From positions 2,666,001 through 2,730,000 of the forward strand of contig NC_037310.1 in the NCBI RefSeq assembly GCF_000143535.2: a stretch of 64,000 nucleotides of DNA, read 5' to 3'. Made by a program: the position numbers and the translations under genes. The first letter of the stretch is position 1, and each line of letters opens with the position of its first letter. The notes beneath the pieces are model-generated. The model was not told the DNA's origin. It saw only the letters and a program-made list of their open reading frames with translations, and did not search any database. The DNA comes from Botrytis cinerea B05.10. Taxonomy: Eukaryota > Ascomycota > Leotiomycetes > Helotiales > Sclerotiniaceae. Positions 1-51,964 of this stretch are shown piece after piece.

Positions 1-3000
1 GGGATAGATGCTGCATGCTCAGAATAATCTAAGTTTTCAAGACTTTTGGGTTCCTCGATCTCTGGATGGACAATGGTTTCCTCAAGAATTGGGACTGATG
101 GATTAAGGTCAAGAGATGGCTGTAGATTCTCGAAGTTTGTGGGTTCGTCAAGTTCGATGGCCTCATTGACATTATCATCCGGAAGCGGTACAGCAGCAGG
201 TTCTAAGAAATCACGACTTTCTGGCTCGATGGTCTCAACTAGTCTTTCGAACGGCTGCTCCAAGGCCTCACGATTAATTGATTCCGTAGCATCAAAAGGC
301 TTCTCTAAGATTTGGTCCTCGACAAGAAGAGTTTGTTCAGGCTCTTTGGTGACTTCGATTGGCACCTCAGGCTCTGACTGGGACTTGTTCTTACTCTTCT
401 TATTTTTCTTGCTTTTCTTGGACTTCTTAGTTTCGGGTGAGGTCGGCACATCTCGGACATCCGTTTTCTCAAGATCAATTTCGCTTGGTGGTTGAACTGT
501 TTCAACTTTTGCTGCAGGTTCAGTGGATAAGAGACTCTCTCCATCAGCATGGCTTGGCTCGAAAGCTTCCAGAACTCCCGACTCCTCCTGTGAAACAACT
601 TGATTTGGTAAAGACTCGTCGGTACCCTTGCTACTTTCCTCGAGAAGTTGCTCTCGTGGTGAGAAAGACTTATCGAAATTATGATTTGGCTCAGTAACTT
701 CAATCTCTCTTGAATCTTCCTCTGAGGCAGCGTGACTTGGCAAAGGAAGCTCATCAACAATGCCTGGCTTATCAACTTCAATAGTATTGTCCAACTCTTC
801 AGAAGGCGGTTCAACTGACAATTCAGACTCTTGAAGACTTGTATCTGGATCGACATACTCGACAGATGCCATGATATCATCTTGGATCGATTCATTTGGC
901 AAAGAAGATTCATCAACCAAGCTTGGTTCAGAGATATCGACATTCTTCGTGACTTTTTCGAGAGTGTATTCATTTGGTGAAACCCCATTACCAATCGTGC
1001 TTGGTTCAGTAGCAAGGTCAAATGGTGCTTGTGATACATTACTATCATCCTGAATAACCTCAAGAGGTATCTTTGAGGGCTCGTTTGATCTTTCAAGAAT
1101 TGCTTGCTCTGGAGTGTCCTCCGACAGGGGTTCTGGCACGAAAATGCTCTCTTGGTCAATTGCGCGAGGAGACTCTGAAGATTTGCTGGGGCTCTCAACA
1201 TTTTGTTCAGGGATATGCTCAGACTGTGGCGGTGAAGTATGAGGATCATTCTGAATAGCCTCACGATCAACTTCCTCGGACTCCCTAGGGTTTTCGATAA
1301 TTGGTTCAGGGGCATCTCTAATTGACACTTCGGGAGCTTGAATCTCTTCCAAGGTAGGTTCGTGTTGAATTTCAGAGGGCTCGCTACTGCTTTCAACAAA
1401 TGGCTCGTTAAGTTCCGGCACTTGAAGCTTAGGTTCCTTCTCAACAACATCATCCCTTGATATATCCGATCCTTGATTGGCTGATTCCCTAGCTCTAAAT
1501 GCTTTGGAGGCCTCTTCGGATATGAACGATTGTAAGCTGTGACGCTTCTTGCCCTTTTGTCTTTTCGATGTTTGGTCGTCCTGTAAATCCTCGGTCGATT
1601 TCATGACTGATGGCTCCGTGATTTGTTCAGCAATTTCTTCCTTGGGCTCAATGGGTAAAGTTTCTTCCTCGATGATCGTACTTGGCACTGGTTCAAAATC
1701 TTCGCTCGCGAACTTCTTGCCCTTTTTCGAATTTGTCTTGAAGTTTTCGTCTGCCAGAGCCCATTCCTCAAGTTCCGCAGTAGGCGACGGTGCTTTGACA
1801 GGTTCAGTCTCGGTGGCCTTTAGCATGGCAGACTCAGACACAATGCGTGGTGTAGACATAAAAGATTCAGATGAAGCGCGTGCTGTAGATGGTCTTGGAG
1901 GGAGTCCTTGCTCAGCGGCGGCAATTGCAGCCCTGTCCTTCTTTTTGCCCCATCCCAAAGCTTGAACCATTTCCAAAACACCCTTTTTTCTTCCTGTCAA
2001 AGGACCCATAAGGCCAGAAAGTCCTGCTGTCATTGGTGCATCGTTGAGAGCTGGCTCTTTCGCGGGGATCGTAATGATTTGTTCCACGGGCATATCGTTT
2101 GGCTGTTCAATTGGCATTTCAATATTGGACGATTCGCCAGTAGTTTTGGTGTCATCGGCAACGGTATCATCTTCAACCAAATCCTGTACTTGCTTGCCAC
2201 GCTTGTTTTTATCTTTCTCGGACTTCTTGGGAGGTGCAGAAAATTCGATTCCACGGTCTACAGTAGAAGGCTCCAGGGGTGTGTTTGGAAGATCTTGCCT
2301 AACATCAGCAGATTCTTCTCCTTGTGTCTTCTCTTCCTCATTGTTGACTTGATCCAAATTATTGGGAATAGAGACTTCCTCGATGGGTGTTAACTCATTC
2401 ACATTGTCTTGGCTCTTATCAAGAGTAACGGACTCCGGTTCAGGGTCGACGGCAATAGAAGATTCATTGAGACTTTGCGGATGCTCCAGCTCTAGTTGCT
2501 CTGGGAAGGTATCCACAGGCATCTTTTCTTCCTCATTGTTGACTTGATCCGTATTCTCGGGAACAGAAAATTCCTCGATGGGTGTTGGTTCAACCACATT
2601 ATCTTGGCTCTTATCAAGAGTAGCGGATTCTGGTTCAGGGTCGACGGTAATAGAAGATTCATCAAAAATTTGTGAGTGCTCGGGCTCGAGTTGCTCTGGG
2701 GAGGTATCTACAGACATCTTTTCTTCCAACGTGCCGGGTATCATGATGTCTTCGGAAGGATTAGATGCAAGCGAACTATCGCGTTTCTTCTGTTTCTTGA
2801 GCTCCTCGCTTTCGGTCTTTACCTCAGGTTCTAGTGTTAGAATTGTCGGATCAATAGGTGCCTTTTCGGTCGTTGCTGGCTCTGGAAAGTCCTGGTCGAT
2901 ATGCACATTTTCGATAGTCTCTGGCTCTTGCACAGGCGTTGAGGTCTCTTCCAAAGAAGTCTGTTCCTTGACAACGTCCTCGACAGGAACAATGTCCTCG

Positions 3001-6000
3001 GGCATTTGTGGCTTCTTGTCAGCTTGCTCAGTCTCCTCTGATTCTTCAAGTACAGGCTTGATAGTCGGCTCCTCGATAATCTCTGTCTGAGATGTAGGGA
3101 CATTTGTTGGCTCGTTCAAATCCTGAATATCATTGTCTGAGGAGGCGGTATCAGAAGGAACCAAATGGTCTTGATCTTGATTGGCATGCTTTTCACTTTT
3201 CTCGTCCTTGGCACTACCAGATTCGAGTTCCTCCTTCAGATCCTTAGGAAGCGCTTGTTGATCGTCTTGATGCCCAGCTTCAAATCCAACCGGAGTTTCA
3301 GTCTCATTGGAAATTGGTTTCTCTTCTCTTTCTTGAATCTCAATTGTAGGAACTTGATCACGTTCTTCTTGTGGCGTATGATTCTCTTCAATGCTCTCTT
3401 CGATCTCTGCAGGTAGTTGGCGAGGGAGAGATGATCCGTCTTCTTGAGCATTGACCGAGAGTCCATTGGATTCAGTAACGTCCCTTTCAAGCCCCTTAGA
3501 AACATCCTCAATCACAATTTCTTGTGGTTTCGATTCCTCTGGTAATGCGTTTGCAAGGCTAAGTTGATCATCTTCATGTCCAGTACTAAGGCTATCAAGT
3601 CCATTCTTATCTTGAGAAATATCATCGGATTTCAATTGTTCGAAACTAGGCATAGTATCTTCGGCAGCAATGATTGGTAGTATTGTTTCTGCAGCTGGAA
3701 AGTAGTCCTTTTCATTCGAGGTAGAGGTTTCTTTTGCACCTGCGGTCCATGGCGTAGCGGGAGTGATTGGCCAACCACCAGGTCCAACCATTGGTGTTGG
3801 CTTCTCTGTTACGCTCTCTGAATTAGGACCAGGGATTAGCGGCTCCATGGTTTCCTCTATGTCTGCAGTCTTACCATTTTTATCCTCATTTCTATCCTCC
3901 ATGGAAGAAGAGGCGGTAGCGTGAGTAGTATCATCGAGGACCGGTGTCTCTTCAAAAGCAAGAGTTTCTGGTAGTTCCTTTTCTTGCGGTTCAGGTACTT
4001 GCTCCTGCTCCTGAATGGCGTCAATTGAGTCCTGCTCGACATTGGCAATTTGTTCCTTCTCTGTCTTTTTCTTGTCCTTCCTGTTATTCTTGGAGTTTGG
4101 AGTTGAGAACTCTTCAATTGGCTCAACATTGACAGGCTTAGTTGGTTCTTGAATAGTTTCTTGAATGGTTTCTTGAGACAAATCTAGAGAATTTCTCGTG
4201 CCATCCTCAGATTGGGAAACCTTAGACTCATCGAGCTCGGGTTGTACCACAGCTTGTTCCGGTTGTGGATCAAGAGGAATTGGCTTAGATTTTTTTGACT
4301 TCTTCTTATCTCTCTTCGATTTAGGGCTAGAAAACTCGGAAACTATGGGCGTGATATCACCAGAATTTTCAGACAGTACAGAATCATCGAATGCCTGTGT
4401 CTCAGAGTTGGCTAGAGGAGAAGATGGCTCCGAAATCTCGCGAGAAAGCTCTGGCGATACCTCGAGTGATCGTTCCCGCATTGGAACTTCAATCATGGAT
4501 TCAACAACTGGCTCGGATATAAGTCCTTCCAGTTTAGGAGTGTCAGCTTTTGCCTTCTTCTTGTCCTTCTTCCTGTCCTTCTTTGACTTGGGAACAGAAA
4601 GTTCCTCGATCGGGTTGATCTCAGCTGAAGGCAAAGTTTCTTCCGTTTGACTAGATTCCGGCACTTGCTCTTGCAGTTCCTCAACTGATTTATAAATTGA
4701 AGGGTCATCATCCATAGGTTTGAAAGGCTCTACGCTATCCACATTTTTTGTCTTCAATTCGGGCTCCAAGGATAAACCATTTGTGTCTGCCTTCTCGTGT
4801 GCTTTCTCTTCTTCGGAGTTCTGGGTAGGATATTCAACGGGTTGAACCTCGGAGGTAGCTGCTTGTTCGATAAGATCTCTAACCGGTCCAGTCACGTCAT
4901 GTGGTTCACTTGAAGCATAGTCGGATTTTGGTCCTTGGGTATCCTCTTGACTGGGAATTTCGCTTTGGAGTTCCAGTTCCGGCTCCTGAGATAATAAAGC
5001 TGTTTCATTCTTACCCAGGCTGTTCTTGGACTTTGGAGTAGAGAAGTTATCTACGGACTCGACATTTTCGGCCTCAATTGGAGTGGAAGGTTCTTGCATG
5101 GGCTCCGGAGTATTCTCGGCTTGATCATGAATGTCATCTGATTCAAGCGTCAAACCTTTGCCCTCATTTTTCTTGAAATCTGACAAAGGAAATTCTTTGG
5201 TCGGCTCGACCTCCTCTTCAATACTCATGGTTTGGTTGCTCGAAGTTCCACTTAAGGTTTGCAATATCTCCTCCCGTTCGGAGGGTGTGTCATGTGACTC
5301 AGATGGATATTCTAAATGGTCGTTTCCACTCTTGTTCTGGATCTCTTGGGAAGATCTTGGTTCCTGCTCATTGCTTGTATCATGAGATACAATAGCAAGG
5401 CCGGCTGCAGTTGCAATTCCTGCGGCTCCAATGGCTTTAGCTATTGATTCAGATGAAGATTGTTTATGAAATGCATCAGAAGATAAAGTTTGCTTTTCTT
5501 CCACTGAGGGGAAAGAATCTTGAAGAAACTCCACTGATGGCGCTAAGTCCCTTTTAAAAGTAATCGCAGTCGGTGTGGATTCTCCGGAGGCGTGATCATC
5601 GGAGGGGAGGTTGGTTGAAAGTGGGTCTAGTGAAGGGCGGTGAAGGTCCAATTTTTCCAAAAAGCCCGATTCGGGTAGATCCGCCACGTCAAGCTCTGAA
5701 TTGGTTCGGGACGGCGGTAAATGTGGGAGCGGGTCAATTAACTCTTCTGGTACGAACGACCCACGTCTGTTAGTCTCTAATAGATACAGGGGCTTGAATT
5801 CCTTGGTATTATCCCACGACATAGGTCTTGATCTAGATCTTGGAATTGTGGTTGACTCTGCAATTGGAGAGGGATGGAAAGTATGAAAGGGCGTATTACC
5901 AGTTGATCTCGTTATAACAGGTGACGCCGAATTGGGTCGGTTTCCCATGACGAATTTTAATGGCACTGCACTTTGGCTTGGAGATTTTACAGGAGTCTCC

Positions 6001-9000
6001 TGCAAACTCTTACGATTTCGCGGAGTCTTCTCCCTTGGCGTACTTACAGTCCGTTTTTCAGATTCAGGTGTTGTAGGTCGACTTTCTGGGAGTTTGGGCA
6101 GGTCATCAATTGGTTCACAATTAGGTGAAACTGAACCACTTGGCGGCAATGGTAAAAGATCTCCATATTGAGGGTCAATTGAGGGTCTGATTTGTCGTTC
6201 GATAATCTCTGGGTCCAATATATCTTCCTCTCTTTCCTGCTTTCCCATCTCCCCCGTACTTCCCTCGCTATCATTATTATTAGCGGCATGTTGCTGTTGG
6301 TGCTGAGCAGAAATTGCAATTGCACCAGCAGCAAGGCCGGCACCCGCGCCAAGGATGCCGGCATTATCTAAAAAAGAACTCTTCTTCGAATCTGAACTTT
6401 TACTCCTCTTCCTCTCTCCATCATTCCTAGAATCTTGCACACCATCCTCACCGCGTGTTTTGTGGCCATTAGTTTCACTTGAAACCAATTGGGAATCACT
6501 GAAAGATTGACCCTCAGTTATCCCATCCGATGTTGAACTCCGTTTTTTCTTTTTCTTCTTGACGTCGTCAGGATCATCACGACTTCCCTTCGTTAGTTCC
6601 TCCTTCGCTGCTTCTGCTTTTGCACCGCTAAAGAACCCAAACAATCCACCACTCTTCTTCGGCGTTGCTTCCTTTGCCTTCTTCTTTGAATCTTCGTTAT
6701 CATCACGAGTAGGGTCCGAAGCGATTGATCGTGTAGCATCATCGTTTTCTTTGGTGCTACTGCGATCTTTTCGCTTTTTTTGCGGCGAATCTTCTTCATC
6801 CACCTTTGAGCTACTACCAGCTGATAAGATTGAACGGGATGAAGCCCACAGTGGATCATCACCATCTCGGCGTGATGGTCGGTCTGGCTCTCTTGACAGC
6901 TCCATATCTTCATAGTTATCAGCGGCTGGTAATGAGATTTGTGAAGGATCAGGAGAATCATAACGTTCGCTCTTGCTTCCCAATTTCTCCTTTGACTTTC
7001 TTCTCAATGATCTGCCAGATTCGGAGTCACCCTCTGCAGGGGGAGGTGAGTTAGAAGGTGAGTCAAATCTAACACTGTCGCGCTTCGACTTTCTGGGTAT
7101 TTTTGATTCGTCGCCATTTTTGATATCATCCATAGAGAATGTTCTGCGACTTTCACGCAAAGGAGAGTCAACTTTCCCATCGTAAGTTGATGAGCGCTTG
7201 CTAGGTTTCCTTTTTGGCTTTGAATCAAGGTCGATATCCTCATACGTAGATGATCGAGATGACTTTTTTGATTTCTTGGGAGTGTCAACAAGGTCAACGT
7301 AACTTTCCGGTTCATCGACTAATTCGCGGTTTGGCAGAAGATCGACAAATGAAGATTCTTCCCTCAAAAGTGACTGTGTTCTTGTTTCCTCCTTGTCACG
7401 TCTCTTTTGTTCCTTTCTACTCTGCCTAGATGAATCAAAATAGCTTTCGGGTTCTTCAACAATAACATCAATGATTGGCGATGATAAATCACCACCACTT
7501 CTTCTTCGTTCTTTGTCAAGCTTTCTCTGTTCTTTCCTGCTAAGATTGGGTGATTCCTCGTTGGAAGGCGATACACTTGACCAGTCTTTTGGAGTTTCTG
7601 GCACCTCGCCCATGACAAAGCCACGATTTGAAGAGCTTTCACCAGGGACGCTTGAAAGGTCGTCGATGGATTCTGCCCATGGCGTTTTGTATTCATTAGA
7701 ACCAGGTGGAGAATCACGTTTTCGAAACGCGAGGTTATCAATCACGAGATCAGGATTGAAGCCAGTATCTTCCAAACCAGCTGCCACTGTTGCAGTGAAA
7801 TCTAAGTCGTCGTCGAAAGCGCCAGGCATATGTGGAGTCTGTGACGGAACAGGCTTGGGGCCGACGCTTGGTGGGCTATCTCTTCTCGGATGCTGAGATA
7901 AACTTTCCCTCCTGTTATTTTGAGGTGGACTTTGACTTCTCATTTCTCCGTATGGACTCTCGGGCTCTACAGTCACGCCTCGGTAGATACTGTCTCTTTC
8001 GATGTCTCGAAATGAATCTCCGTATGGACTCTCAGGCTCTACAGCCACGCCTCGATACAGGCTGTCTCTTCCCATATCTTGAGGTAGACTATCTCGCCTC
8101 GGTTCTCCGTATGGACTCTCAGGCTCTACCACTACGCCTCTGTACTCATAAGGCCTTTCATTGCGCTCCTGTTCCCTTGCTTTCAAGATTCTAGCAAGCT
8201 CACTGACTTCGGCACGCTTAGGAGATTCGGGTCGCTCACTTTCCCTAGCTTTCAAGATCCTGGCGAGTTCACTTACCTCGGCTCGCTCGGGTTTCTTAGG
8301 GGATTCAGGTCGCTCCCTTTCCCTTTCTTTCAAGATTCTAGCAAGTTCGGTAATCTCAGCTCGCTTGGGAGATTCAGGTCGCTCACTTTCCCTGGCTTTC
8401 AAGATCCTAGCGAGTTCACTTACCTCGGCTCGCTCGGGTTTCTTAGGGGATTCAGGTCGCTCAAGTCTTTTAGGAGGTTCACTCGAGCCTGCTACTGCAG
8501 CACCCATGCCTGCACCAATGATACCTGCTGCCATTGCGGCCCATCCGCCCGGAGATTTTGGTTCAGTCTGTGACTCCAATCTTGGTTCCTGATATCTTGG
8601 CTTCTCGGGGGTTTCTGGGGATGATTCAGAAGTGTACTCGTCCTTTTGTTCGGTTGGACTTTCTACTTCGAAGTGTTTTGTCTCGTTTGGACCCCAGGTA
8701 ACAGCTTTTGAGACCGTTGATTGAGTGGGAGATGGAACGGGAACATCAGATGACCGAATAAGGTCTCCTCTTGGGCCAATAATGATGGGAGGAATATCTT
8801 TTCTATCACGCTTTGGGCGATTTTGATCATGCGACTCATCTTTTGATTGGTGTGATGGAGTCTCTTCGCGGATCTGTGCGGTTTCGCTAGGCTTGTCTTG
8901 TGATCGATATGATGAAGTTTGTTCACGGTCCTCAATTGTATCTCTGGGCTGGGTTGGTTCGTCTTGCGATCGTATAGTAGCTTGTTCCCGCTCTTCAATT

Positions 9001-12000
9001 TGATCCTCAGTTTTAGAATGACGTTCAGGTTCAGGTTCAGGTTTAGGTTCAGAACGGCTTCTTTCATCTGGGCGATTATCCGATCGATTAGAATTATCCT
9101 TTTTCACATTTCCATTCTTAGCCATAGAAGAAAACTGTTTCTCGGGTGATGGTGTTGAAGTAGGAGTGGGCCGGATCAAGTTCAAGAGAGGTCGAGGCAG
9201 TCTAGCATCCGCATCTTTTGTCATGAATGGACCCTTCAAATCAGCTTGGTCAACCTTGTATCGCCTGCTTGGAATGCTGTAGACTTTTAGATCTCTAGGC
9301 GTCATGATATAATCAAGCTTGAAATCAGCATTTGGTGCATCATAGGGACCTTTCTTGCGTTCATGCATGCCGGGAGGAGTGACAATGCGTGTTGGTTCTT
9401 CTTCTTCTGACTCTTCCTCGTATTTGTTCATCACTGAGCGCTCAGGTGATGGAGTGCGAGAACGGCGGACTTCTGCTGCAACTTTCCTAGCCATGACAAT
9501 TTCACGATAAGCTCGATCCGCCTCTGCCATAACTTCATCGTGAGATTTTTCCGGACCATTGGCGGAATCACTGTCTTTTGAAAGATCCTCCGAGTCAGTT
9601 CTTCTCTCTCCTCGTCGTTTCGATGATCTTGATTCTCGGCGAGTTTCCCGAGCCAAAGCAGCAGCGGCGGCGGCAATGGCTGCTGCCTCAATAGGAGCTG
9701 TAGAATGTTCAGTCTCATCATAAATCATTTCCGCATCATGAAGAGTTCTGGAATGTTCTTTGTATTGTTGTTCCTTATCATCTTTGTCGGAAACTTCGGT
9801 GCGTGGTTCGGAGCGGGAGATGGAAGATGGTTCATTAAATGATGAATTTTGATTTCGATTGAATTCTGGTTCGCGTTCGACAGTAACAACGGTAGGTGTA
9901 GATTGGTCTTTAGCTTGACGGCTAGAGCTTTCCTGGCGAGTAGGCGAGTCTGCAACCTGATATTGGAATGGATCCGAGGATGTGCGAGCCATTGCCGATA
10001 TTTCTGAGAGTACGTGGGCTCGTCGCTCTTCATAGTTGTCTTCAATGCGATCAGGTGCACGTCGTTCTTCGCGTCTCTCTCGTCGTCTCCTCTCTCGCTC
10101 CTCTGCAGCAGCATCAGGATCATCACGACTCTTTTCTCGATTCTTATCACGATCAGAATTAGAAGTTGAGCTTCTAGAATCATCTTTTCTTCGCTCCTCG
10201 CGACGCTTCTCTCGTTTTTCATCCCACGTAAGGTTACTATCAGCGATGGAAGATTGATCATAATCACGACGGCGCTCCTTTCGGTCTTCATCACGAGGTC
10301 TAGAGACGCTGCTATCGGCAAGTGAGTATTGATCCTCTTCGTAGCGTCGTTCCTTTCGGTCGCTATCTCGTCGAGTAACGGCGCTTTCACTATAGCTCCG
10401 GTTGTCTCTTCTGTCATCATCGCGATAGTTATCCTTTTCATCTCGACGACCAGATGCAATTGCAGCTCCAACAGCGGCTCCAGCTACGCCAGCTAAGGCC
10501 GCGCCAGCTAAGGATTTAGATCTGCCAGTGGAGCTTTTCAAGATTCCGCCAGACTCTGAACGAACGTAGTTGGGCTCGTGATAAACACTCTGAGAAACGG
10601 GAGTGATGGGTTGAGGTTGCTGAATTGGAACTGGTGCTGGTCTTGAGGCATTGTATTCCGACGAAGATGCTCGCGCCACATCAAATCGAGAGGGATCATT
10701 GGTGGGGACTGGGAAGACTTCTTGAAGAGGGGTCTGCGGACCACTTGCAACACTGTGGGTCCTGCTCACCCTTACCCTTTCGTGTACATACAAAGTATCC
10801 ACCTGTCTCTCTGGATGGCTGTAAGGAATGTAATTGTGTTGACCAAAATCACTACCCGACTCCCATTGCACGTCTTCGAAACCAACAGCTCTATCTGATA
10901 AATAACCATTGAGGGAATTCTCTGGCCCAAGGAGTCTTGGATCGACCACATTACTCTTTCGACTCTTTAGGCTATGGGTTCTCTTGCGCCCGAAGAAGTT
11001 GGATTGACTTTTCTTGCCAGGATGACTACCACCTCCGAACGCCAAACCGGTATCAACACTTGAATCCGACTCGTCATCAGAGGCTGATTCCCATCCTTCA
11101 TCATCATTAGGGTCGGTCTCGTACGGAGTAGCCTTAGAAGGGGGGAGGCCGCGCTCATCCCTTCGACTAGAAGTAGCGGTTTCAGGAACACCGCGTCCGT
11201 TCTTACCGTTCTTGGCGTCTTTTTTGCTATGATCGAGTGCGAGTTTAGCAAGTCCAGCGAGTCCAGCACCCACAGCCAAAATGTCAGCATCGGTAGTTGG
11301 TCTTCTCGAGCTTTTAGGTCTGTCGTTCGTGGCAGGTCGGGTATCTCTCAAGCTTTCCTTGCTAGACTTGTATCCTATGGTTTCCCACTGCCTGTCTCTT
11401 CCATCCCTGGCTCTCACACTCCTCTTCCTTCTGTATCTTAGAAATCCGGTCCCAAAAGCTAAATCTTCATTCAAAGAGGAGCTTGATGAGGAATTGTGTT
11501 TCGTCAATTTCTTAGCTTTCTTCTTCTCCTTTTTCTTTTTAGAATCAGACTTTTCGGATGGTGTCGTAAAGAAAGACCTGAAACTAAACCCTTTGGTAGG
11601 AAAATGGCGAGAGATATCGAGGTACGAAGAAGTAGATGATCCTGATGTACTCAAATATTCCGTGGTTTGCGGCCCGCGTTCCATTCCTGAAGGTTGGCGC
11701 ATTCCACGTTCTCGTTCTGATTTCTCGCGCTCCATCATTTGTCGTTCATGTTCTCGTGCCCGTTCTGGATCATAATATTCTGCTACCGTAATTGTATTTT
11801 CTTTATCATATGGTCCTGTTCGTGATGGGTCCATTGACATGGTAGTTGCAGTCGTATCATAATGAGCAGTACGTGGCGTATCGGGATGCGCGATAGAGCT
11901 TTCCATACCCGGATCGAATCGACCAGTTCGCGGTGTGTCAACAGACATAGTGCTCTCAGCAATATCATACCTTCCTGGCCTAGGAGCGCGACCTTCGGGA

Positions 12001-12437
12001 TAATTTTCTCCGCCATTAAATCGCCCGGGTTGTGGTGTGCCACCATTATAAGAGCTTTCTCCGCCACGATAGCCTGCAGCTCCTGGTGTAACTGCTGGAC
12101 GTCCCCCAATCGCACTCTCTCCCCCATAATAACGATCGTGTCTCGGCGTATCTGTTGAAACGAAACTCTCTCCGCCATCATATCCTGCAGTTACTGGTGT
12201 GTAAGGGGTGTAGGGTGTGAAGGGCGTCATGGGCGTGTTTGGGGGCATAGACCCAAATCTCCTATCATTTCGTTCCCGACCCGAAACTGAGCTCTCCTCT
12301 CCATCAAATCCCAAAGTTGGAGGCGCGCGTCCATTATATCCTCGTCCCCCATTACCATTTCCACCGCCATATCCATTCCCTCTCGGCGCAATCGATGGAT
12401 CTCCTCCCCTGCCATATCGATCGCGTTTCTCAGCCAT
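1..12437 (-). CDS. Giant Leashin/involucrin-repeat-like protein, N-terminal 4,145 residues (3' end outside window)
   Basis: The ATG is at 12437-12435, begins MAEKRDRYGRGG, and is preceded in frame by a stop at 12452-12450. The frame then stays open to the left edge: 4,145 codons without an intron. Order: Gly/Arg-rich start and 'DTPR..GRYD'-like repeats (about residues 1-230); a Lys-rich patch (about 300); long charged, probably disordered Ser/Glu/Arg sequence; tandem repeats near residues 1320-1500; then a Glu/Pro/Ser/Thr-rich region with recurring Lys-rich blocks. Five Gly/Ala-rich hydrophobic stretches interrupt the charged sequence. This architecture and size match the fungal proteins annotated 'involucrin repeat protein', which include Leashin (LAH). 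LAH tethers Woronin bodies to the cell cortex or septal pore. The family's conserved C-terminus is outside the window, so the assignment rests on N-terminal style and composition. Another giant disordered scaffold is the alternative. Confidence 0.72.
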   Translation of the reverse strand, partial: MAEKRDRYGRGGDPSIAPRGNGYGGGNGNGGRGYNGRAPPTLGFDGEESSVSGRERNDRRFGSMPPNTPMTPFTPYTPYTPVTAGYDGGESFVSTDTPRHDRYYGGESAIGGRPAVTPGAAGYRGGESSYNGGTPQPGRFNGGENYPEGRAPRPGRYDIAESTMSVDTPRTGRFDPGMESSIAHPDTPRTAHYDTTATTMSMDPSRTGPYDKENTITVAEYYDPERAREHERQMMEREKSERERGMRQPSGMERGPQTTEYLSTSGSSTSSYLDISRHFPTKGFSFRSFFTTPSEKSDSKKKKEKKKAKKLTKHNSSSSSSLNEDLAFGTGFLRYRRKRSVRARDGRDRQWETIGYKSSKESLRDTRPATNDRPKSSRRPTTDADILAVGAGLAGLAKLALDHSKKDAKNGKNGRGVPETATSSRRDERGLPPSKATPYETDPNDDEGWESASDDESDSSVDTGLAFGGGSHPGKKSQSNFFGRKRTHSLKSRKSNVVDPRLLGPENSLNGYLSDRAVGFEDVQWESGSDFGQHNYIPYSHPERQVDTLYVHERVRVSRTHSVASGPQTPLQEVFPVPTNDPSRFDVARASSSEYNASRPAPVPIQQPQPITPVSQSVYHEPNYVRSESGGILKSSTGRSKSLAGAALAGVAGAAVGAAIASGRRDEKDNYRDDDRRDNRSYSESAVTRRDSDRKERRYEEDQYSLADSSVSRPRDEDRKERRRDYDQSSIADSNLTWDEKREKRREERRKDDSRSSTSNSDRDKNREKSRDDPDAAAEERERRRRERREERRAPDRIEDNYEERRAHVLSEISAMARTSSDPFQYQVADSPTRQESSSRQAKDQSTPTVVTVEREPEFNRNQNSSFNEPSSISRSEPRTEVSDKDDKEQQYKEHSRTLHDAEMIYDETEHSTAPIEAAAIAAAAAALARETRRESRSSKRRGERRTDSEDLSKDSDSANGPEKSHDEVMAEADRAYREIVMARKVAAEVRRSRTPSPERSVMNKYEEESEEEEPTRIVTPPGMHERKKGPYDAPNADFKLDYIMTPRDLKVYSIPSRRYKVDQADLKGPFMTKDADARLPRPLLNLIRPTPTSTPSPEKQFSSMAKNGNVKKDNSNRSDNRPDERSRSEPKPEPEPERHSKTEDQIEEREQATIRSQDEPTQPRDTIEDREQTSSYRSQDKPSETAQIREETPSHQSKDESHDQNRPKRDRKDIPPIIIGPRGDLIRSSDVPVPSPTQSTVSKAVTWGPNETKHFEVESPTEQKDEYTSESSPETPEKPRYQEPRLESQTEPKSPGGWAAMAAGIIGAGMGAAVAGSSEPPKRLERPESPKKPERAEVSELARILKARESERPESPKRAEITELARILKERERERPESPKKPERAEVSELARILKARESERPESPKRAEVSELARILKAREQERNERPYEYRGVVVEPESPYGEPRRDSLPQDMGRDSLYRGVAVEPESPYGDSFRDIERDSIYRGVTVEPESPYGEMRSQSPPQNNRRESLSQHPRRDSPPSVGPKPVPSQTPHMPGAFDDDLDFTATVAAGLEDTGFNPDLVIDNLAFRKRDSPPGSNEYKTPWAESIDDLSSVPGESSSNRGFVMGEVPETPKDWSSVSPSNEESPNLSRKEQRKLDKERRRSGGDLSSPIIDVIVEEPESYFDSSRQSRKEQKRRDKEETRTQSLLREESSFVDLLPNRELVDEPESYVDLVDTPKKSKKSSRSSTYEDIDLDSKPKRKPSKRSSTYDGKVDSPLRESRRTFSMDDIKNGDESKIPRKSKRDSVRFDSPSNSPPPAEGDSESGRSLRRKSKEKLGSKSERYDSPDPSQISLPAADNYEDMELSREPDRPSRRDGDDPLWASSRSILSAGSSSKVDEEDSPQKKRKDRSSTKENDDATRSIASDPTRDDNEDSKKKAKEATPKKSGGLFGFFSGAKAEAAKEELTKGSRDDPDDVKKKKKKRSSTSDGITEGQSFSDSQLVSSETNGHKTRGEDGVQDSRNDGERKRSKSSDSKKSSFLDNAGILGAGAGLAAGAIAISAQHQQQHAANNNDSEGSTGEMGKQEREEDILDPEIIERQIRPSIDPQYGDLLPLPPSGSVSPNCEPIDDLPKLPESRPTTPESEKRTVSTPREKTPRNRKSLQETPVKSPSQSAVPLKFVMGNRPNSASPVITRSTGNTPFHTFHPSPIAESTTIPRSRSRPMSWDNTKEFKPLYLLETNRRGSFVPEELIDPLPHLPPSRTNSELDVADLPESGFLEKLDLHRPSLDPLSTNLPSDDHASGESTPTAITFKRDLAPSVEFLQDSFPSVEEKQTLSSDAFHKQSSSESIAKAIGAAGIATAAGLAIVSHDTSNEQEPRSSQEIQNKSGNDHLEYPSESHDTPSEREEILQTLSGTSSNQTMSIEEEVEPTKEFPLSDFKKNEGKGLTLESDDIHDQAENTPEPMQEPSTPIEAENVESVDNFSTPKSKNSLGKNETALLSQEPELELQSEIPSQEDTQGPKSDYASSEPHDVTGPVRDLIEQAATSEVQPVEYPTQNSEEEKAHEKADTNGLSLEPELKTKNVDSVEPFKPMDDDPSIYKSVEELQEQVPESSQTEETLPSAEINPIEELSVPKSKKDRKKDKKKAKADTPKLEGLISEPVVESMIEVPMRERSLEVSPELSREISEPSSPLANSETQAFDDSVLSENSGDITPIVSEFSSPKSKRDKKKSKKSKPIPLDPQPEQAVVQPELDESKVSQSEDGTRNSLDLSQETIQETIQEPTKPVNVEPIEEFSTPNSKNNRKDKKKTEKEQIANVEQDSIDAIQEQEQVPEPQEKELPETLAFEETPVLDDTTHATASSSMEDRNEDKNGKTADIEETMEPLIPGPNSESVTEKPTPMVGPGGWPITPATPWTAGAKETSTSNEKDYFPAAETILPIIAAEDTMPSFEQLKSDDISQDKNGLDSLSTGHEDDQLSLANALPEESKPQEIVIEDVSKGLERDVTESNGLSVNAQEDGSSLPRQLPAEIEESIEENHTPQEERDQVPTIEIQEREEKPISNETETPVGFEAGHQDDQQALPKDLKEELESGSAKDEKSEKHANQDQDHLVPSDTASSDNDIQDLNEPTNVPTSQTEIIEEPTIKPVLEESEETEQADKKPQMPEDIVPVEDVVKEQTSLEETSTPVQEPETIENVHIDQDFPEPATTEKAPIDPTILTLEPEVKTESEELKKQKKRDSSLASNPSEDIMIPGTLEEKMSVDTSPEQLEPEHSQIFDESSITVDPEPESATLDKSQDNVVEPTPIEEFSVPENTDQVNNEEEKMPVDTFPEQLELEHPQSLNESSIAVDPEPESVTLDKSQDNVNELTPIEEVSIPNNLDQVNNEEEKTQGEESADVRQDLPNTPLEPSTVDRGIEFSAPPKKSEKDKNKRGKQVQDLVEDDTVADDTKTTGESSNIEMPIEQPNDMPVEQIITIPAKEPALNDAPMTAGLSGLMGPLTGRKKGVLEMVQALGWGKKKDRAAIAAAEQGLPPRPSTARASSESFMSTPRIVSESAMLKATETEPVKAPSPTAELEEWALADENFKTNSKKGKKFASEDFEPVPSTIIEEETLPIEPKEEIAEQITEPSVMKSTEDLQDDQTSKRQKGKKRHSLQSFISEEASKAFRARESANQGSDISRDDVVEKEPKLQVPELNEPFVESSSEPSEIQHEPTLEEIQAPEVSIRDAPEPIIENPRESEEVDREAIQNDPHTSPPQSEHIPEQNVESPSKSSESPRAIDQESIFVPEPLSEDTPEQAILERSNEPSKIPLEVIQDDSNVSQAPFDLATEPSTIGNGVSPNEYTLEKVTKNVDISEPSLVDESSLPNESIQDDIMASVEYVDPDTSLQESELSVEPPSEELDNTIEVDKPGIVDELPLPSHAASEEDSREIEVTEPNHNFDKSFSPREQLLEESSKGTDESLPNQVVSQEESGVLEAFEPSHADGESLLSTEPAAKVETVQPPSEIDLEKTDVRDVPTSPETKKSKKSKKNKKSKNKSQSEPEVPIEVTKEPEQTLLVEDQILEKPFDATESINREALEQPFERLVETIEPESRDFLEPAAVPLPDDNVNEAIELDEPTNFENLQPSLDLNPSVPILEETIVHPEIEEPKSLENLDYSEHAASI
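2332..2730. repeat. 195-bp direct tandem duplication in the giant gene
   Basis: The segment beginning ctcattgttgacttgatcc near 2337 recurs 195 bp later near 2532 with high identity. It encodes 65 residues that include 'LDKSQDNV', 'TPIEE' and 'DQVNNEEEK'. The spacing is a multiple of three, and the few differences suggest a fairly recent duplication. Confidence 0.85.
7945..8155. repeat. Three imperfect in-frame repeats within the giant gene
   Basis: A block reading tctccgtatggactctc on the plus strand recurs at 7945, 8017 and 8104. Each copy encodes a 'YRGVxVEPESPYG' motif. Copy spacing is 72 and 87 bp, both multiples of three, so the frame is kept. Confidence 0.85.
8176..8475. repeat. Four tandem repeats, alternating 69 and 78 bp, in the giant gene
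   Basis: The string tttcaagat recurs at 8181, 8250, 8328 and 8397. Each unit encodes 'AExxELARILKxRExERPESPK', about residues 1320-1420. Unit spacing alternates 69, 78, 69 bp because every other copy carries an extra three codons (KPE). The array therefore looks like a duplicated 147-bp dimer. All units keep frame. Confidence 0.87.
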
Positions 12438-14204
12438 TATGCCGTACCCTTAGGCAGGGACTTCTTCTCAACTTCAGCTCCGGGATTGGTATTTATTCGT
12501 GATCATATCATTAACATATCATCCAGCTTCGTAAATGATTCCTTCAATCGGAAATCGGAAATCGTCTCGTCGTTGTGTATCTTATCCAAATTCGTTATCA
12601 ATTGTGCTCTTATGGTTCGGCGATTCGCAATGGTAAAATTGCCTAAGTTTGATGCTCTAGATGATGAAACTAAGGAGGGGATGGGGACGCAGATGATAGC
12701 TTGTGATAGTCCAAGATCTGGCTCCTTTCGATAAAATTTAGAGATTGCGTTTCTTTAGCTAGGGAGAAAAGTAGGAGTGGAGAGGTAGCGTAGCCGTGGT
12801 GAATTGTGGTAGACGGTTGACAGTAGACCACAAGATGGGGCGGGCTGTAATTTTAATTAAGAGGCTGGAGAAAAGCGCCAAATGGAAAACAATCGGGGAT
12901 CAAGCGAATCTCGACTTTGGTTTTAGTGACGTTTAGTGGTGTACCGCTGGGCAATCCTTGATTGAACGCCACAAGTAATGTTGATCTTTAAAATGATTTT
13001 TTCATTCAGCTGAAGTTTGAATTTCTTGATACGAGATGCGTAGATTCGTGGTGAGGGAAGATAAAAAAGGGAGATGCCAATTCAAATGGTCGTTGATGGA
13101 GTGAATCGTTATTGCTGTTGTTGTTGTTGTTGTTCTGGTCGTTATCGTTGTCGTTGTCGTCGTCGTCGTCGTTATAACACACAAAAGAGAGAATTGTCGT
13201 GATCAAGGGAGGTGGGAGGAAAACTACCAAGTACCGTATAAGTATTGTAGCAAGTGGCCTTTCTTCTGAGATGGAGTCTGTCTCTCGTTCCTTAATACTA
13301 CCTTTCCATCCCTTTAGAGCTACATTGTTGTCGGTGGGTTTCCCTCGATGGATCCCCCAGGAGACCCCGATTATTTACAGTTTTTAATGTCTGAGGGCGG
13401 TGAATATCAAAGCCTCTCATTGACTTCTTCGCCTTACATGAGAAATGCTCTTGGGCGATTGGACTCCGAGTTCGAGATGACGAACTTGCTTCTTGCCTCT
13501 CGATTGAGTCAAGTTGCATGTGTTCCATTCAAGCTGAAATATACATCCCATCAGTCAATCCATCGATCAATCAATCTTCGCATCTCCCTCCCATACATGT
13601 TCGAAACCATTGCAAGTTGCAACTATCCGACCCATTATTTTCTACCCGGCGCCAGTGATGCATCTCTACCAAATGTGGCAATCACCTCTCTGTCCTCCCC
13701 ACCATATTGGACCAGCCAGAGCTCCTCCCTCGTGCAGTGAGTAAGTGCACGGAATGCAACAATAGTGGATAGCGTGGGTCAAAGTTACGACTCGGTGTAC
13801 TTTTATATTTAACCTCAAACTCACGATAACCTCTCGATTACCTCTCAATTGCCTGCTCAATTTCAACACAATCAACCAAGAACCAGCCAATTTAACATCT
13901 TACAATCAACTACCAAAAAGTCCCTCTAAAGTCAGAGCGTATGAAAAACCATGAATTGGGCATGATCTACGTCTACGTGTCAGTTTATGCACAGGATGCA
14001 CAAAATATGCACTGCAATATTACCGAGCTCAAAATGCCAGCTCATAGGTTAATGAATATGTGAGAGGATTCTAGATTGTACATCTGATTGTACAGAATTT
14101 AAGTGGAATTCATTTGTCCTCCGCCCAATCGTATAGTTGGGAATTAATACTTCTAATGCAAATAAGTTGAGCTGAAATATTTTGCTTCCTGCGGTTTTAC
14201 ACGT
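12438..14204. other. Intergenic region upstream of the giant gene
   Basis: This is 1.77 kb between the giant gene's start and the end of the ABC transporter gene, so it should hold the giant gene's promoter and 5' leader. It contains a TTG/GTC trinucleotide tract at 13112-13173. A 130-codon plus-strand frame at 13348-13740 has no recognisable features. No RNA gene seen. Confidence 0.6.
13112..13173. repeat. Trinucleotide microsatellite (TTG)n/(GTC)n
   Basis: An imperfect run of TTG followed by GTT/GTC units lies in the presumed upstream region of the giant gene. Confidence 0.85.
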
Positions 14205-17200
14205 CTATCGGTCAAGTGCTTGAGATTGACACTGAGGTTTGTAAGTACAATGAAGTTTGAACAGACTTGAGGCGGGGTGACGTTAAACTTTTGAAGACTT
14301 ACCATTTGATAATATACACCTTTCTTCCTTAACAACGCTGAATGATCTCCCACTTCCAATACCCTACCTTCACCCAACACAAAAATCACATCTGCATTCT
14401 GCACAGTGGCTAATCGATGGGCTACGACAACCATCGTCCTACCTGTTGCCGCCCGTTCAAATGCTGCTTGTACAAGCTTCTCGCTCTCAGAATCCAGACT
14501 AGATGTTGCTTCGTCAAGAAGAAGAATCTTGGGATTGCGAATGAGCGCACGAGCTATTGATATTCGTTGTTTTTGTCCTCCTGAGAGAGCAACTCCTTTG
14601 TTGCCGACATTTGTATTGTAACCATCAGGGAGAGACATGATAAAGTCGTGAATCTCGGCATCACGACAGACTTCATGGAGGGTCTCTTCTGGAGTCGACT
14701 CATCGACACCCAAATATATGTTCTCTTTGATGGTGCCTTCAAACAAAGTAGGCTCCTGTGCTACGAGCGAGATCATTTTCCGGTATTGTCGGATATCGAG
14801 TTCGGAGATATCGGTGTCGTTGCATAATATCTTACCCTTCTGGACATCGTAGAATCTTTCAAGGAGACTGACTAGTATCTAGTTTAGTAAATTATATATC
14901 AATCGACAAATGTGAAATTACCAATTGATGTTTTTCCACAGCCTGAAGGGCCAACCAACGCAGCAAATTGTCCTTTCTTGATCTATGATGGTCAGCATCC
15001 TCATCAACTATGCTACAGATTCGACTTACCGTGATATTCAAACCAGTAAATATTGGAACATCACGAGTAGGGTACTTGAACCAGACATCTTTCAATTCTA
15101 TCTTCGCCCCGCCCTCTATATTCTGGATTTGCGGTGCTGAATTTCCAGTTGCTTCTGCCGGTAGTCGAAAACTCAATATTCTGTTTGCTGCTGCTGATGC
15201 TTGTGCAATATCTATCGCGATATTAGCAACTAAGAACAGGGGGAGTTTACCAACAGAGTACTAACTAGGGCCAAAACTTAAAAGACTTCCAGCGCTCTCG
15301 GCACCATTTATTATAGCAATATAAACCACAAAGAAGTTGACTGGACCATATTCTCGAGAAGCAAGGAGGGTGCCGCCATACCACTACAGGGCAATTCATA
15401 TTAGCTTAGGCTTCAGACCAGTTCGGACCGCAGTACAACAAGAAGAATCTCTTAGATTTAAGGGCCATTTCGTGCATCCAACCCCCAAGCTTGGATAACA
15501 ATGCAATAGCACCCTAGATATGATAAATGAACTCACAAATGATAAAGCCATACATCCCAGTCCAAAGCTCTCGCTAGCGGCAAAAACGATCGATGAGTAT
15601 CTGCTTTTCTTGGCGTGGCCCTTTACATGCCACTCCAGCAGTTCCTCGTAACGGGTGCAAATCATATCCTCCAAGGTCAACGAGGTAACTGTTCGAAATG
15701 CAGAGATTGCTTCAGCGGCAAATTTGGAACTTTCAGCAAAGACTGCTTGGTTCATCTTCTCAAACTGAATCTCATACCGAATGCGATAAAAACTGCCACA
15801 GATCAACAAAGGAAGGGCGACGAAGGCCACCACACAGGTTAGCTTCCAGCCAAAAACAAAAGCGATGATGATGCAACCAGTAATATTACAAATTGCCGTC
15901 AGTACCATGGCCATATTAATGCCAAGTAACTGTTGAAGTTGGGTTGGGTCATTGGCGACACGACCAGTAAGCTCACCGCTGGAGTTTTCCTCTGCGTCAA
16001 AAAAGGCAATCGGCTTATGTAGAATACTCTCAAAATACTCTTGGCGGTATATGGAAGTAATGTGACCAGATATTATGGTCGATGAATAACCCATAAGGAA
16101 CCAAGCTAAACCAGCACCCAGCCCAAGAATGAAGAACATCAAGGCGTAGTGCTCTGTGGCAGCCTTAAGTTTGGGTCCGGTCAATGAAAACACTGAAATG
16201 ATTTGTGCAAATAGATAGGCTTGAATGGGATAGGCGGCGCCAGCAGCTATAGCACCTATTATAAGCATCAAGTACCATTGCCATCGAGCGCGTTGCTCAT
16301 ATAGGAAAAGTCCGAGACTTCCGGCGAGACCCTTGGGTTTGTATGCCACTACTTCTTTTTGTTCCTTTTCCTTTCCCGCTGCGCTCATTTCCTGTATTAT
16401 GGGGTCCATTGTCTCCACCAAATTCGACTCCTCTTGATAGATCTCCCCTAAAGATAATTGTTGGGCATTAACGAGAGCACTATATGCGCCGTCCGGGTTA
16501 GAAAGCAATCCCTCATGAGTTCCCTCTTCGATAAGCTTTCCCTTCTTCATGACCACAATCTTGTCGGCTTTTTTGATCGTCGAAAGTCTGTGAGCAATCG
16601 TAATGGTTGTTCTACCCTCGCTCACTTTATCCAAGGCTGCCTGAACAATTCGCTCTCCTCTTACATCAATTGCACTGGTAGCTTCGTCTAATATCAAGAT
16701 CTTTGGTCGCTTGATAATACTTCTAGCGATGGCCAATCTCTGCCTCTGTCCGCCGCTCAGCTTAATACCAGCATCGCCAACTTGTGTATCATATCCCAAG
16801 GGCAATTTTAATGATATATTCATCAGCAAAAGCTTCTTTACAAGCCTCTATGACAAGCTTCCTCTTCGTTTCGGCACTTTCGAGCTCCCATTCTGAACCA
16901 ATCAAACCATATTCAACGTTTTTAGCTATCGTATCATTGAATATGAACGGCTCTTGTTGTACAAGGCCAATTTGTGTTCGCCACCATCTGAGGTCGAGGG
17001 ATCTCAAGTCGTTATTCCCACATGCAATAATACCGGATAGAGCAACTGAATCCTGTTTCTCGTCGTACTCCTCGGGGCTCTTTGATCTTTCTTCTTCTCC
17101 CTTCTTCTTATCTTCTTTCTCATCTTTCATAGCGCTTGGAGGTATCACAATTCGTTGCTCCTCGAGATTGTACCATCTTTCTAAGAGACCTAGTAGTAGG

Positions 17201-48700: not shown

Positions 48701-48984
48701 TCATGGCATCAAACAACACAATCCGTGAATTGCTGCCGGAAGCAGTTCAGGGCTTGAGACATTTGGACTGCAACAGCAACGAGATAAATAGCTTGAATTC
48801 GCGAATCGGGCTTATGGGTGGACCAGATGGATTGCAGACTCTGAATGTCAGTGGAAATCGATTCCGTGTGCCAAAGTACACGATATTGGAGAAAGGTACA
48901 GAGGCCACACTTGCATGGTTGAGAGATAGGATACCCTCTGCAGATATGCCTTCAGGGGAAACTAGTCCGACAGACGTCGATTAG
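45732..48984 (+). CDS. LRRC40-like leucine-rich-repeat protein with long disordered N-terminus, 1,064 aa
   Basis: Exons 45732-47456 and 47515-48984; the 58-bp phase-0 intron falls inside an LRR (SLNL/SNNK). Residues 1-440 are Pro/Ser/Arg-rich and disordered. At about 450 the sequence SKGLLRKRISAARTDGRLNI begins the part that parallels animal LRRC40 (lead-in GLLKAARKSGQLNLS). About 18-20 LRRs follow (LxxLxLxxNxL), for example LETLDLHGNLLKEIPAGL and LRILNITENRFQSLPFDIL. A non-repeat linker of about 100 residues (near residues 810-890) separates two LRR blocks, as in LRRC40. Expected role is protein binding; the partner is unknown. The ATG at 45732 is the first in frame; the frame extends to 45687 without an ATG. 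Confidence 0.85.
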
Positions 48985-51415: not shown

Positions 51416-51964
51416 GTTGTGTAGTTCGGTTGTTGTATTAAGAAATGTACTCTGTTCTTTAATTTGTAGGCTTTGTGCTATCGTAAAATCATGAGAGGGG
51501 CGGTTGGATCTTTCAAATGGTTGGTTGATTATACGTAGGTGTAGAATCGGACGGTGGGCGCATTATTTATTTTTCGGGATTGAAGCTTCGGAAAGTTTTC
51601 GAGGAACGTCATCGCTATGAATTGGAATGGTCAGCATCCGCAATAGCATTGAAACTTCACTCCACATTCACGCAGCAACATTCGTTCCAGGTTCAAAACT
51701 GTAATCGCATTTAATATTAATTATGAGAGTTTTCCAAGAACTGTTATAAAACGAAACGGCGTTAAGAATTGATTAATGTTACTATTTCTGTTTAGGTTCA
51801 TGATTGTAGTGAAGTGGTGAACTTTATATTTCTAGCTGTCTCGCGAAACCCCTCTCGTCGCGTCCTCCCAACACGCGATCCCAAATTAAAATAAACATTG
51901 CTTCATAACAACGTATTGTTCTCCAATTGAGACGGCAATGGGATAGCGCAAGACACCCACAGAT
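51416..51964. other. Divergent promoter region, 549 bp
   Basis: Lies between the OXLD1-like gene (-) and the coiled-coil gene (+) and should serve both. No clear TATA box. Confidence 0.5.

What the first reader, a model, noticed from the sequence alone, without database searches (positions are those of the whole stretch)
1..12437. A 4,145-codon uninterrupted frame that leaves the window
A start at 12437 with an in-frame upstream stop opens a frame with no stop to base 3 and no intron. Because it never closes here, an ORF finder that needs a stop shows only its shadows in other frames. Composition and layout suggest Leashin, the Woronin-body tether.
Basis: partly seen in the sequence, partly recalled or inferred. 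Interest (0 to 1): 0.75.

Follow-up and report, generated by a model that had tools for sequence, protein, structure and literature searches.

The report
Giant fungal Woronin-body tether gene
The open frame is the first 60% of a fungal gene for a 6,847-residue rope-like protein, very probably the Leashin/Lah tether that holds plug organelles (Woronin bodies) next to the pores between fungal cells.

Summary
In detail: ATG 12437 (-) opens 4,145 stop-free codons to base 3, with an in-frame stop 5 codons upstream. Sequence to the left carries the frame to codon 6,344; a 55-nt intron and a 503-codon last exon give 6,847 aa.

The Leashin reading is supported: conserved ends, an acidic, poorly conserved middle of about 3,750 residues, and a C-terminal domain that matches Aspergillus and Sordariaceae relatives and reproduces the published Lah pore-anchor layout. 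The genome looks like Botrytis cinerea (inferred).

Beyond that reading: (1) a predicted 5,201-aa form of this gene lacks the anchor through a 356-nt splice, and a Sclerotinia nivalis model ends at the same splice with the same residues; (2) eight Gly/Ala-rich hydrophobic segments stud the chain, two aligned in 35 of 35 chosen relatives; (3) the published Lah 'transmembrane' segment has a central Glu and an Arg in 232 of 240 proteins held, which suits a membrane helix poorly. Functions are inferred throughout; no transcript or localisation data were available.

The parts
3..12437 (-). lah (leashin) exon 1, codons 1-4145 of 6344; continues 6.6 kb beyond the left edge of the window (to C1:2659406), then 55-nt intron and last exon C1:2659350-2657839
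5769..11639 (-). conserved N-terminal region, aa 267-2223, a string of 24 short conserved blocks; the candidate Woronin-body side of the tether (binding inferred)
   Evidence: 35 chosen relatives
3..5687 (-). start of the poorly conserved acidic P/E/L/S-rich linker (aa 2251 to about 6000; aa 2251-4145 lie in the window), punctuated by Lys-rich clusters
11232..11288 (-). Gly/Ala-rich hydrophobic segment s1, aa 384-402
   Evidence: aligned equivalent in 15 of 35
10455..10511 (-). Gly/Ala-rich hydrophobic segment s2, aa 643-661
   Evidence: aligned equivalent in 35 of 35; conserved block 641-660
9651..9707 (-). Gly/Ala-rich hydrophobic segment s3, aa 911-929
   Evidence: 30 of 35; conserved block 906-922
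8484..8540 (-). Gly/Ala-rich hydrophobic segment s4, aa 1300-1318
   Evidence: 29 of 35
6306..6362 (-). Gly/Ala-rich hydrophobic segment s5, aa 2026-2044
   Evidence: 35 of 35; conserved block 2018-2041
5388..5444 (-). Gly/Ala-rich hydrophobic segment s6, aa 2332-2350 (s7 aa 5583 and s8 aa 6208 lie left of the window)
   Evidence: 15 of 35
5747..5899 (-). 153-nt in-frame stretch (GTAATACG..CGTACCAG), 'intron A' of the predicted form P0002; also missing, with the same borders, from the S. sclerotiorum model P0018; it encodes a block (aa 2204-2223) present in 119 of 125 relatives
8164..8463 (-). tandem coding repeat (units around RPESPKRAEVSELARILKARE) inside the N-terminal region
2327..2727 (-). 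195-nt tandem coding repeat, 2.1 copies, in the linker
12474..12522 (-). four short upstream open frames within 85 nt of the start codon

Best explanation
This is the 5' 60% of the single leashin (lah) gene of a Botrytis-like fungus. The 6,847-aa full product is one continuous tether: a conserved N-terminal third that binds the Woronin-body surface (inferred, through WSC), a long disordered acidic linker acting as an elastic spacer (inferred from composition), and a C-terminal coiled-coil plus helical domain that docks on the septal-pore rim (inferred from the published Lah anchor). Unlike Neurospora, where the locus is split into lah-1 and lah-2, both ends here lie in one uninterrupted reading frame plus one small intron, the layout proposed as ancestral. 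Shown here: the gene structure by frame and splice signals, the conservation pattern, the homology to Aspergillus and Sordariaceae relatives, the anchor layout, the Gly/Ala segments and the Lys clusters. Inferred: binding, tethering, elasticity and localisation.
For: Gene structure; a 6,854-aa database protein (P0003, other contig, source withheld) is 98.1% identical end to end and has the same last exon. Size and charge: 6,847 aa, net -513, against 5,936-7,480 aa outside Neurospora and acidic in PMC2690989 (parts 1-3 of 6 read). Conserved ends with a poorly conserved acidic P/E/L/S-rich middle; same description in PMC2690989. C-terminal match: 490 proteins with E<=1e-3 (best 120 listed) and 145 in a shorter length range (best 120 listed), including A. 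nidulans FGSC A4 ANIA_10735 and the Sordariaceae Copromyces (4,342 aa) and Pseudoneurospora (4,475 aa). Anchor layout: PMC5345055 (parts 1-2 of 5 read) gives 49 aa + membrane-type segment + 219 aa, with two valines whose change abolishes targeting; 9 of 9 Aspergillus relatives examined carry VV in the segment and 217-223 residues after it, 2 of 2 Sordariaceae 222 and 226, and the window's gene has the homologous segment with 222 after it. Family label: many relatives are named 'Involucrin repeat protein', and PMC8227032 (passages) names A. fumigatus AFUA_2G08060, 'involucrin repeat protein', as the Woronin-body tether. PEQIALPESP (3 times) and PAQISLPESP resemble the Neurospora R2/R3 consensus PEEVELPASP.
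Against: No sequence of an experimentally studied leashin was aligned directly. The A. nidulans hit is a 3,667-aa model, shorter than the 5,936 aa given in PMC2690989. The repeat resemblance is modest: 4 of 500 (R2/R3) and 6 of 500 (R1) shuffles reach the best score, and the reversed R1 consensus scores almost as well (36 against 37). Pfam gives no family above cut-off for the 4,145-aa piece or the last exon. No transcript, localisation or binding data. The leashin name rests partly on annotation labels.
Confidence: 0.93

Rival explanations
1. The locus makes two products from separate promoters, as Neurospora lah-1/lah-2 do, and the single long frame is only a relic of the fused ancestor.
For: Neurospora precedent (PMC2690989); the frame gives no information on promoters.
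Against: One frame of 6,344 codons links both conserved ends with no stop. Most Sclerotiniaceae relatives in hand are single proteins of 6.6-7.3 kaa; the exceptions are the shorter models P0014, P0016 and P0020.
Confidence: 0.07
2. Alternative splicing makes a second, anchor-less tether: intron B (donor GTGAGT, acceptor TTTCCAG, 356 nt) shifts the frame to an early stop (...NDHSTG) and gives a form with the Woronin-body end but no coiled coil or pore anchor, a splicing counterpart of the Neurospora gene split. Intron A is a second, independent choice.
For: P0002, from a contig of this chromosome's length, is exactly this form. The Sclerotinia nivalis model P0016 (OCU04_000350, 5,053 aa) ends in the same residues...KNSKDINDHSTG, so the donor, the acceptor and the stop in the new frame recur in another genus. 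P0016 keeps intron A; the S. sclerotiorum model P0018 removes intron A with the same borders and keeps intron B, so the two choices vary separately. Canonical donor, acceptor and a CTRAY at -23. The only fully invariant 7-mer (DTHTSFQ) in the 220 aa around lies on the acceptor in 15 of 15 Sclerotiniaceae relatives.
Against: Whether these models rest on reads or on predictors, or on one another, is unknown. Only 2 of the proteins held (P0002, P0016) end this way; the 15 relatives aligned read through (one, P0013, with a gap at the donor). The invariance test was made after seeing the model; my rough estimate of a chance hit is a few per cent; of four near-invariant runs one is on the acceptor, one starts 3 codons after the donor and two are elsewhere. 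No DNA of relatives was available.
Confidence: 0.45
3. The C-terminal pore anchor is a soluble helical docking domain; the segment called transmembrane in A. fumigatus Lah is a buried helix of that domain.
For: The segment (FMSMTMTMVWEFIFTRYLFGM here) has a central Glu and an Arg at +5 in 232 of 240 proteins held. Plain-sum insertion energies on a scale recalled from memory are +3.8 to +8.0 (median +5.5) for these 232, against +1.6 to +2.8 for six of the eight Gly/Ala segments. A locus on C14 encodes a relative of the domain (31% identity, E 1e-10) next to a coiled-coil-like frame, and its counterpart of the segment also carries the Glu.
Against: PMC5345055 reports that the isolated segment goes to internal membranes, that the protein pellets, and that two V-to-E changes abolish targeting; TMpred and Phobius predicted a membrane segment. 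Two of the eight Gly/Ala segments score as badly (+4.9, +5.3). The AlphaFold2 model was unusable (pLDDT 45). The segment-level match with the C14 locus is weak (2 of 1000 shuffles as good; its stretch further upstream gives no match, 151 of 1000), and that locus has one in-frame TGA.
Confidence: 0.5
4. An unrelated giant disordered scaffold (involucrin-like or other), not a leashin.
For: Repetitive acidic composition alone could mislead; no Pfam match above cut-off.
Against: The C-terminal region is strongly conserved with Aspergillus and Sordariaceae relatives and reproduces the Lah anchor layout; one search found no other strong match to it in this genome.
Confidence: 0.03

Closest known systems
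Lah of Aspergillus fumigatus (AFUA_2G08060, 'involucrin repeat protein'; PMC5345055, PMC8227032)
   Same: Giant tether with a C-terminal anchor whose hydrophobic segment lies about 219 residues from the end; the homologous segment and spacing are found here and in 9 of 9 Aspergillus relatives.
   Different: The window's gene is about 1.3 kaa longer than the residue numbers used for A. fumigatus imply (my estimate from V5303); SMTM instead of SVVM at the mutated valines; A. fumigatus Lah itself was not aligned.
Leashin LAH-1 / LAH-2 of Neurospora crassa (NCU02793; PMC2690989, PMC7275032)
   Same: Conserved ends, acidic P/E/L/S linker, PEEVELPASP-like repeats; C-terminal region matches two Sordariaceae proteins of about LAH-2 size (4.3-4.5 kaa).
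   Different: Neurospora splits the locus into two genes with a promoter between them; here one frame spans both ends. The anchor-less end here would come from a splice (intron B), not from a separate gene.
'Involucrin repeat protein' / hypothetical proteins of Sclerotiniaceae (e.g. Botryotinia calthae, Sclerotinia sclerotiorum sscle_02g014340)
   Same: Direct orthologs, 57-96% identical over aa 1-520 and 93-99% over the C-terminal 525 where they have it.
   Different: Differences in predicted splicing and in the fast-changing linker; no functional work seen in the papers searched.

Membership tests
Leashin/Lah | Giant, strongly acidic protein of roughly 5.9-7.5 kaa from one locus (outside Neurospora) | tested here: met
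   6,847 aa, net charge -513; range from PMC2690989
Leashin/Lah | Conserved N- and C-terminal regions separated by a poorly conserved P/E/L/S-rich linker | tested here: met
   identity to 35 chosen relatives (of 125 then in hand) 0.14 in aa 1-250, 0.28-0.48 per 250-residue bin in aa 251-2250 except 0.15 in aa 1251-1500, 0.08-0.20 in aa 2251-6000, 0.26 then 0.56-0.78 after 6000
Leashin/Lah | C-terminal anchor: hydrophobic segment followed by about 219 residues, conserved with Aspergillus | tested here: met
   (9 of 9 Aspergillus, 2 of 2 Sordariaceae and the window's gene)
Leashin/Lah | Coiled coil just before the anchor | tested here: inconclusive
   heptad-like sequence by eye and sub-threshold Pfam matches to coiled-coil families; no coiled-coil predictor run; AlphaFold2 model of low confidence
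Leashin/Lah | R1 and R2/R3 repeats of the Neurospora protein | tested here: inconclusive
   PEQIALPESP x3 and PAQISLPESP; best scores reached by 4 of 500 (R2/R3) and 6 of 500 (R1) shuffles
Leashin/Lah | Direct sequence match to an experimentally studied leashin | not testable with these tools
   A. fumigatus Lah and N. crassa LAH-1/2 not among listed hits; A. nidulans ANIA_10735 and two Sordariaceae proteins were
Leashin/Lah | Found only in Pezizomycotina | tested here: inconclusive
   organism names shown are Pezizomycotina by recalled taxonomy, but two lists are capped at 120 and many entries are unnamed
Leashin/Lah | C-terminal segment crosses the membrane (claim of PMC5345055) | tested here: inconclusive
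   central Glu and Arg in 232 of 240 proteins; high insertion energy on a recalled scale
Leashin/Lah | Binds Woronin bodies through WSC; localises to the septal pore | not testable with these tools
   needs cell biology; five loci of the PMP22/Mpv17 family exist in the genome; that WSC belongs to this family is recalled, and which locus is WSC was not resolved

The most novel reading that the evidence does not exclude
Leashin is not a plain spring with one membrane foot. The pore end is a soluble helical docking domain, and membrane or self contacts are made instead by a conserved ladder of short glycine/alanine-zipper helices set along the disordered chain, with Lys-rich clusters folding back on the acidic linker to give elasticity. 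In Sclerotiniaceae a conserved splice choice additionally produces an unanchored tether, doing by splicing what Neurospora did by splitting the gene.
Probability: 0.18. Interest if true: 0.6.

Novelty: new member of a known kind. Interest (0 to 1): 0.42.

Why it matters
It gives a complete leashin gene in a widely studied plant-pathogen genus, in the fused form proposed as ancestral, and shows that predicted anchor-less forms of it recur with the same splice in two genera. It also makes two open points testable: whether the Lah pore anchor really crosses the membrane, and what the conserved Gly/Ala segments in the supposedly featureless tether do. How Woronin bodies are moved into the pore, and whether Lah contracts, is described as speculative in PMC5745230 (passages).

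Tried and rejected
Pfam on the 4,145-aa piece and on the last exon: no family above cut-off. PDB sequence search of the last exon: nothing better than E 0.038, to the coiled-coil-like stretch. AlphaFold2 of the C-terminal 314 residues with 14 sequences in the alignment: mean pLDDT 45, not used, no fold search made on it. A second job was not run because further accepted relatives are too alike to help. The eIF-5A family, tried as a way to HEX-1, gave one locus on C7, not resolved between eIF-5A and HEX-1. The PMP22 family gave five loci, WSC not resolved. tRNA and Rfam scans of the window: none. The A. oryzae leashin paper was not held. Hydrophobic segments without the Gly/Ala filter are not rare: 200 shuffles of the protein average 1.8 and reach 7; with the filter 500 shuffles average 0.008 and reach 1. 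A simple collinear BLAST coverage table was superseded by the alignment. The C14 locus as proof of a soluble domain: kept only as weak evidence.

Full report
CHECK OF THE OBSERVATION. The minus-strand frame from ATG 12437 to base 3 is open for 4,145 codons. An in-frame TAA lies at 12450-12452. The window is C1:2666001-2730000 of a genome of 42,630,066 bases in 18 contigs; the best named relatives are Botrytis species, and the size and contig number fit Botrytis cinerea B05.10 (recalled, not from a call). I fetched the 20 kb to the left. The frame has 6,366 sense codons before a stop at C1:2659339. A 55-nt intron (GTAAGT...CTAAT...GCAG) after codon 6,344 joins it to a last exon of 503 codons (P0128), for 6,847 aa. 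P0003, a 6,854-aa database protein from another contig (source withheld), is 98.1% identical end to end, and the last exon is letter-identical in it.

WHAT IT IS. A search with residues 1-520 found 21 proteins of 2,414-7,032 aa, many named 'Involucrin repeat protein'. A search with the C-terminal 525 residues of P0003 found 490 with E<=1e-3, best 120 listed, Leotiomycetes and Sordariomycetes where named (recalled taxonomy). To reach LAH-2-sized and Aspergillus relatives I searched the C-terminal region of a Thyridium protein with a shorter length range: 145 proteins, best 120 listed, among them A. nidulans ANIA_10735, other Aspergillus and Penicillium species, and the Sordariaceae Copromyces and Pseudoneurospora at 4,342 and 4,475 aa. 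Over the last 300 or so residues the window's gene is 67% identical to A. nidulans, 69% to A. bombycis and 67% to each of the two Sordariaceae. PMC8227032 (passages) ties the label 'involucrin repeat protein' in A. fumigatus to the protein that tethers Woronin bodies to septal pores.

ANATOMY. In an alignment with 35 relatives that I picked from the 125 then in hand, mean identity per 250 residues is 0.14 in aa 1-250, 0.28-0.48 in aa 251-2250 except 0.15 in aa 1251-1500, 0.08-0.20 in aa 2251-6000, 0.26 in the next bin and 0.56-0.78 at the C-terminal end. The N-terminal region is a chain of 24 short conserved blocks (aa 267-2223); the C-terminal block 6496-6804 averages 0.79. Net charge is -513, concentrated in aa 2001-5500, where P+E+L+S make up 37-52% per 500 residues. 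PMC2690989 (parts 1-3 of 6 read) describes leashins as 5,936-7,480 aa outside Neurospora, with complex ends, a poorly conserved acidic middle and, in Neurospora, PEEVELPASP repeats; the window's protein has PEQIALPESP three times and PAQISLPESP once, though 4 of 500 shuffles reach the best score.

ANCHOR. PMC5345055 (parts 1-2 of 5 read) narrows the A. fumigatus pore anchor to 288 residues: 49, a membrane-type segment and 219, with the valine pair V5303/V5304 essential. In 9 of 9 Aspergillus relatives examined FMSVVMTM(V/I)WE(F/Y)(V/I)FTRYLFGM has 217-223 residues behind it; the window's gene has FMSMTMTMVWEFIFTRYLFGM with 222. So the anchor is homologous. The segment is an odd membrane helix: a Glu in the centre and an Arg five residues on occur in 232 of 240 proteins held; of the other eight, five lack the region and three are variants, two with Asp in place of Glu and one that keeps the Glu but changes neighbouring residues. 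On the Hessa scale, recalled from memory and summed plainly, it scores +3.8 to +8.0; six Gly/Ala segments score +1.6 to +2.8 and two +4.9 and +5.3. AlphaFold2 gave no usable model. A locus on C14 matches the domain at 31% (E 1e-10) in a shorter gene with a coiled-coil-like frame and one in-frame TGA. The published experiments favour a membrane segment; the sequence favours a buried helix. I leave this open at even odds.

GLY/ALA SEGMENTS AND LYS CLUSTERS. Eight 19-residue stretches rich in Gly and Ala reach a mean hydropathy of 1.2 or more at aa 384, 643, 911, 1300, 2026, 2332, 5583 and 6208; 500 shuffles give at most one each. Across 109 relatives longer than 5,000 aa the number is 1-11, median 6. 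Aligned equivalents occur in 15, 35, 30, 29, 35, 15, 28 and 24 of the 35 chosen relatives. The two Aspergillus models looked at have one and two hydrophobic segments besides the anchor, so the series is shown for Leotio- and Sordariomycetes only. The linker carries 11 basic clusters (shuffles: mean 0.7, maximum 4 of 500). The motif K[KRS]S[KR][KR][DNE][KR][KR] occurs once in the window's protein; 97 of 135 relatives longer than 4,400 aa have it, 38 do not, with 635 sites in all, mostly at 0.4-0.8 of the length and often after acidic and aromatic residues. Functions are inferred: self-association or membrane contact for the first, electrostatic folding back for the second.

SPLICE FORMS. P0002 (5,201 aa, contig length equal to C1, 38 member sequences in its cluster) is reproduced exactly by removing 153 nt (window 5899-5747, intron A) and splicing a 356-nt intron (intron B, 3.3 kb left of the window) into a stop after ...NDHSTG. 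It keeps the N-terminal end and loses coiled coil and anchor. P0016 keeps intron A. Two further models (P0021 unnamed, P0022 Rutstroemia) end by reading into the last intron, a third way to lose the anchor, or an annotation slip. The intron A block is present in 119 of 125 relatives. The peptide over the intron B acceptor, DTHTSFQ, is the only fully invariant 7-mer in the 220 residues around it in 15 of 15 Sclerotiniaceae relatives; of four near-invariant runs two are away from the splice sites. Shared predictors could explain recurring models, so this stays a candidate.

MECHANISM. Most likely the N-terminal region binds the Woronin body (in Neurospora residues 1-344 bind through WSC, PMC2690989), the acidic linker spans and springs, and the C-terminal domain holds the pore rim. 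At 6,847 residues with both ends in one frame, this is the septum-tethering form, not the split Neurospora form. The gene structure is shown; binding, elasticity and position are inferred from the family.

NOVELTY. An ordinary but complete member of a known family: PMC2690989 already states that homologs exist in all Pezizomycotina genomes sequenced then. In my searches I noticed no work on the Botrytis gene itself, and in the parts and passages I read nothing on Gly/Ala segments; most of those papers I saw only as listings, and supplements were not read.

Noticed in passing
window 12474-12522 (-): Four very short upstream open frames crowd the last 85 nt before the lah start codon; they could damp translation.
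   Followed up: no
window about 14150-17751 (-): The next gene upstream on the same strand looks like an ABC transporter (ABC_tran in 16792-17751; LSGGQ-type signature read in the frame 15396-16847).
   Followed up: partly
G000 C14:1392114-1392587 (+) (L005): A shorter gene with a distant relative of the Lah anchor domain and a coiled-coil-like frame before it; one TGA in the matched frame, so intron or pseudogene unresolved.
   Followed up: partly
P0002 and P0016 (S. nivalis), intron B: Models of this gene in two genera end at the same 356-nt splice with the same residues (HSTG) and lack the pore anchor; P0002's cluster lists 38 member sequences on one contig, possibly many predicted isoforms.
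   Followed up: partly
P0018 (S. sclerotiorum), window 5747-5899 equivalent: The model skips intron A with the same borders as P0002, although the stretch encodes a block present in 119 of 125 relatives.
   Followed up: partly
P0021 (unnamed) and P0022 (Rutstroemia), last intron: Both models end by reading into the last intron (MADVYVS...), losing the anchor exon.
   Followed up: no
P0013 (Monilinia laxa), site of intron B donor: The model has a gap starting at the conserved donor peptide (SKDINDR|EFGF), perhaps another splice prediction there.
   Followed up: no
P0234 (Elsinoe batatas), residues 189-493: The Lah anchor domain sits near the start of a 3,043-aa model that also carries PF07539, PF23099 and PF20416 (P0235 of E. 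ampelina has the same Pfam set), probably a fusion of lah's end with a neighbouring gene.
   Followed up: no
window 51947-54724 (+): A 925-codon open frame without any Pfam match at E<=1e-5, with a 36-nt tandem repeat at 52700-52794.
   Followed up: no
window 47515-48981 (+), 58366-59493 (-), 61606-62565 (+): Leucine-rich-repeat protein, aldo/keto reductase and putative RNA methyltransferase frames (Pfam).
   Followed up: no
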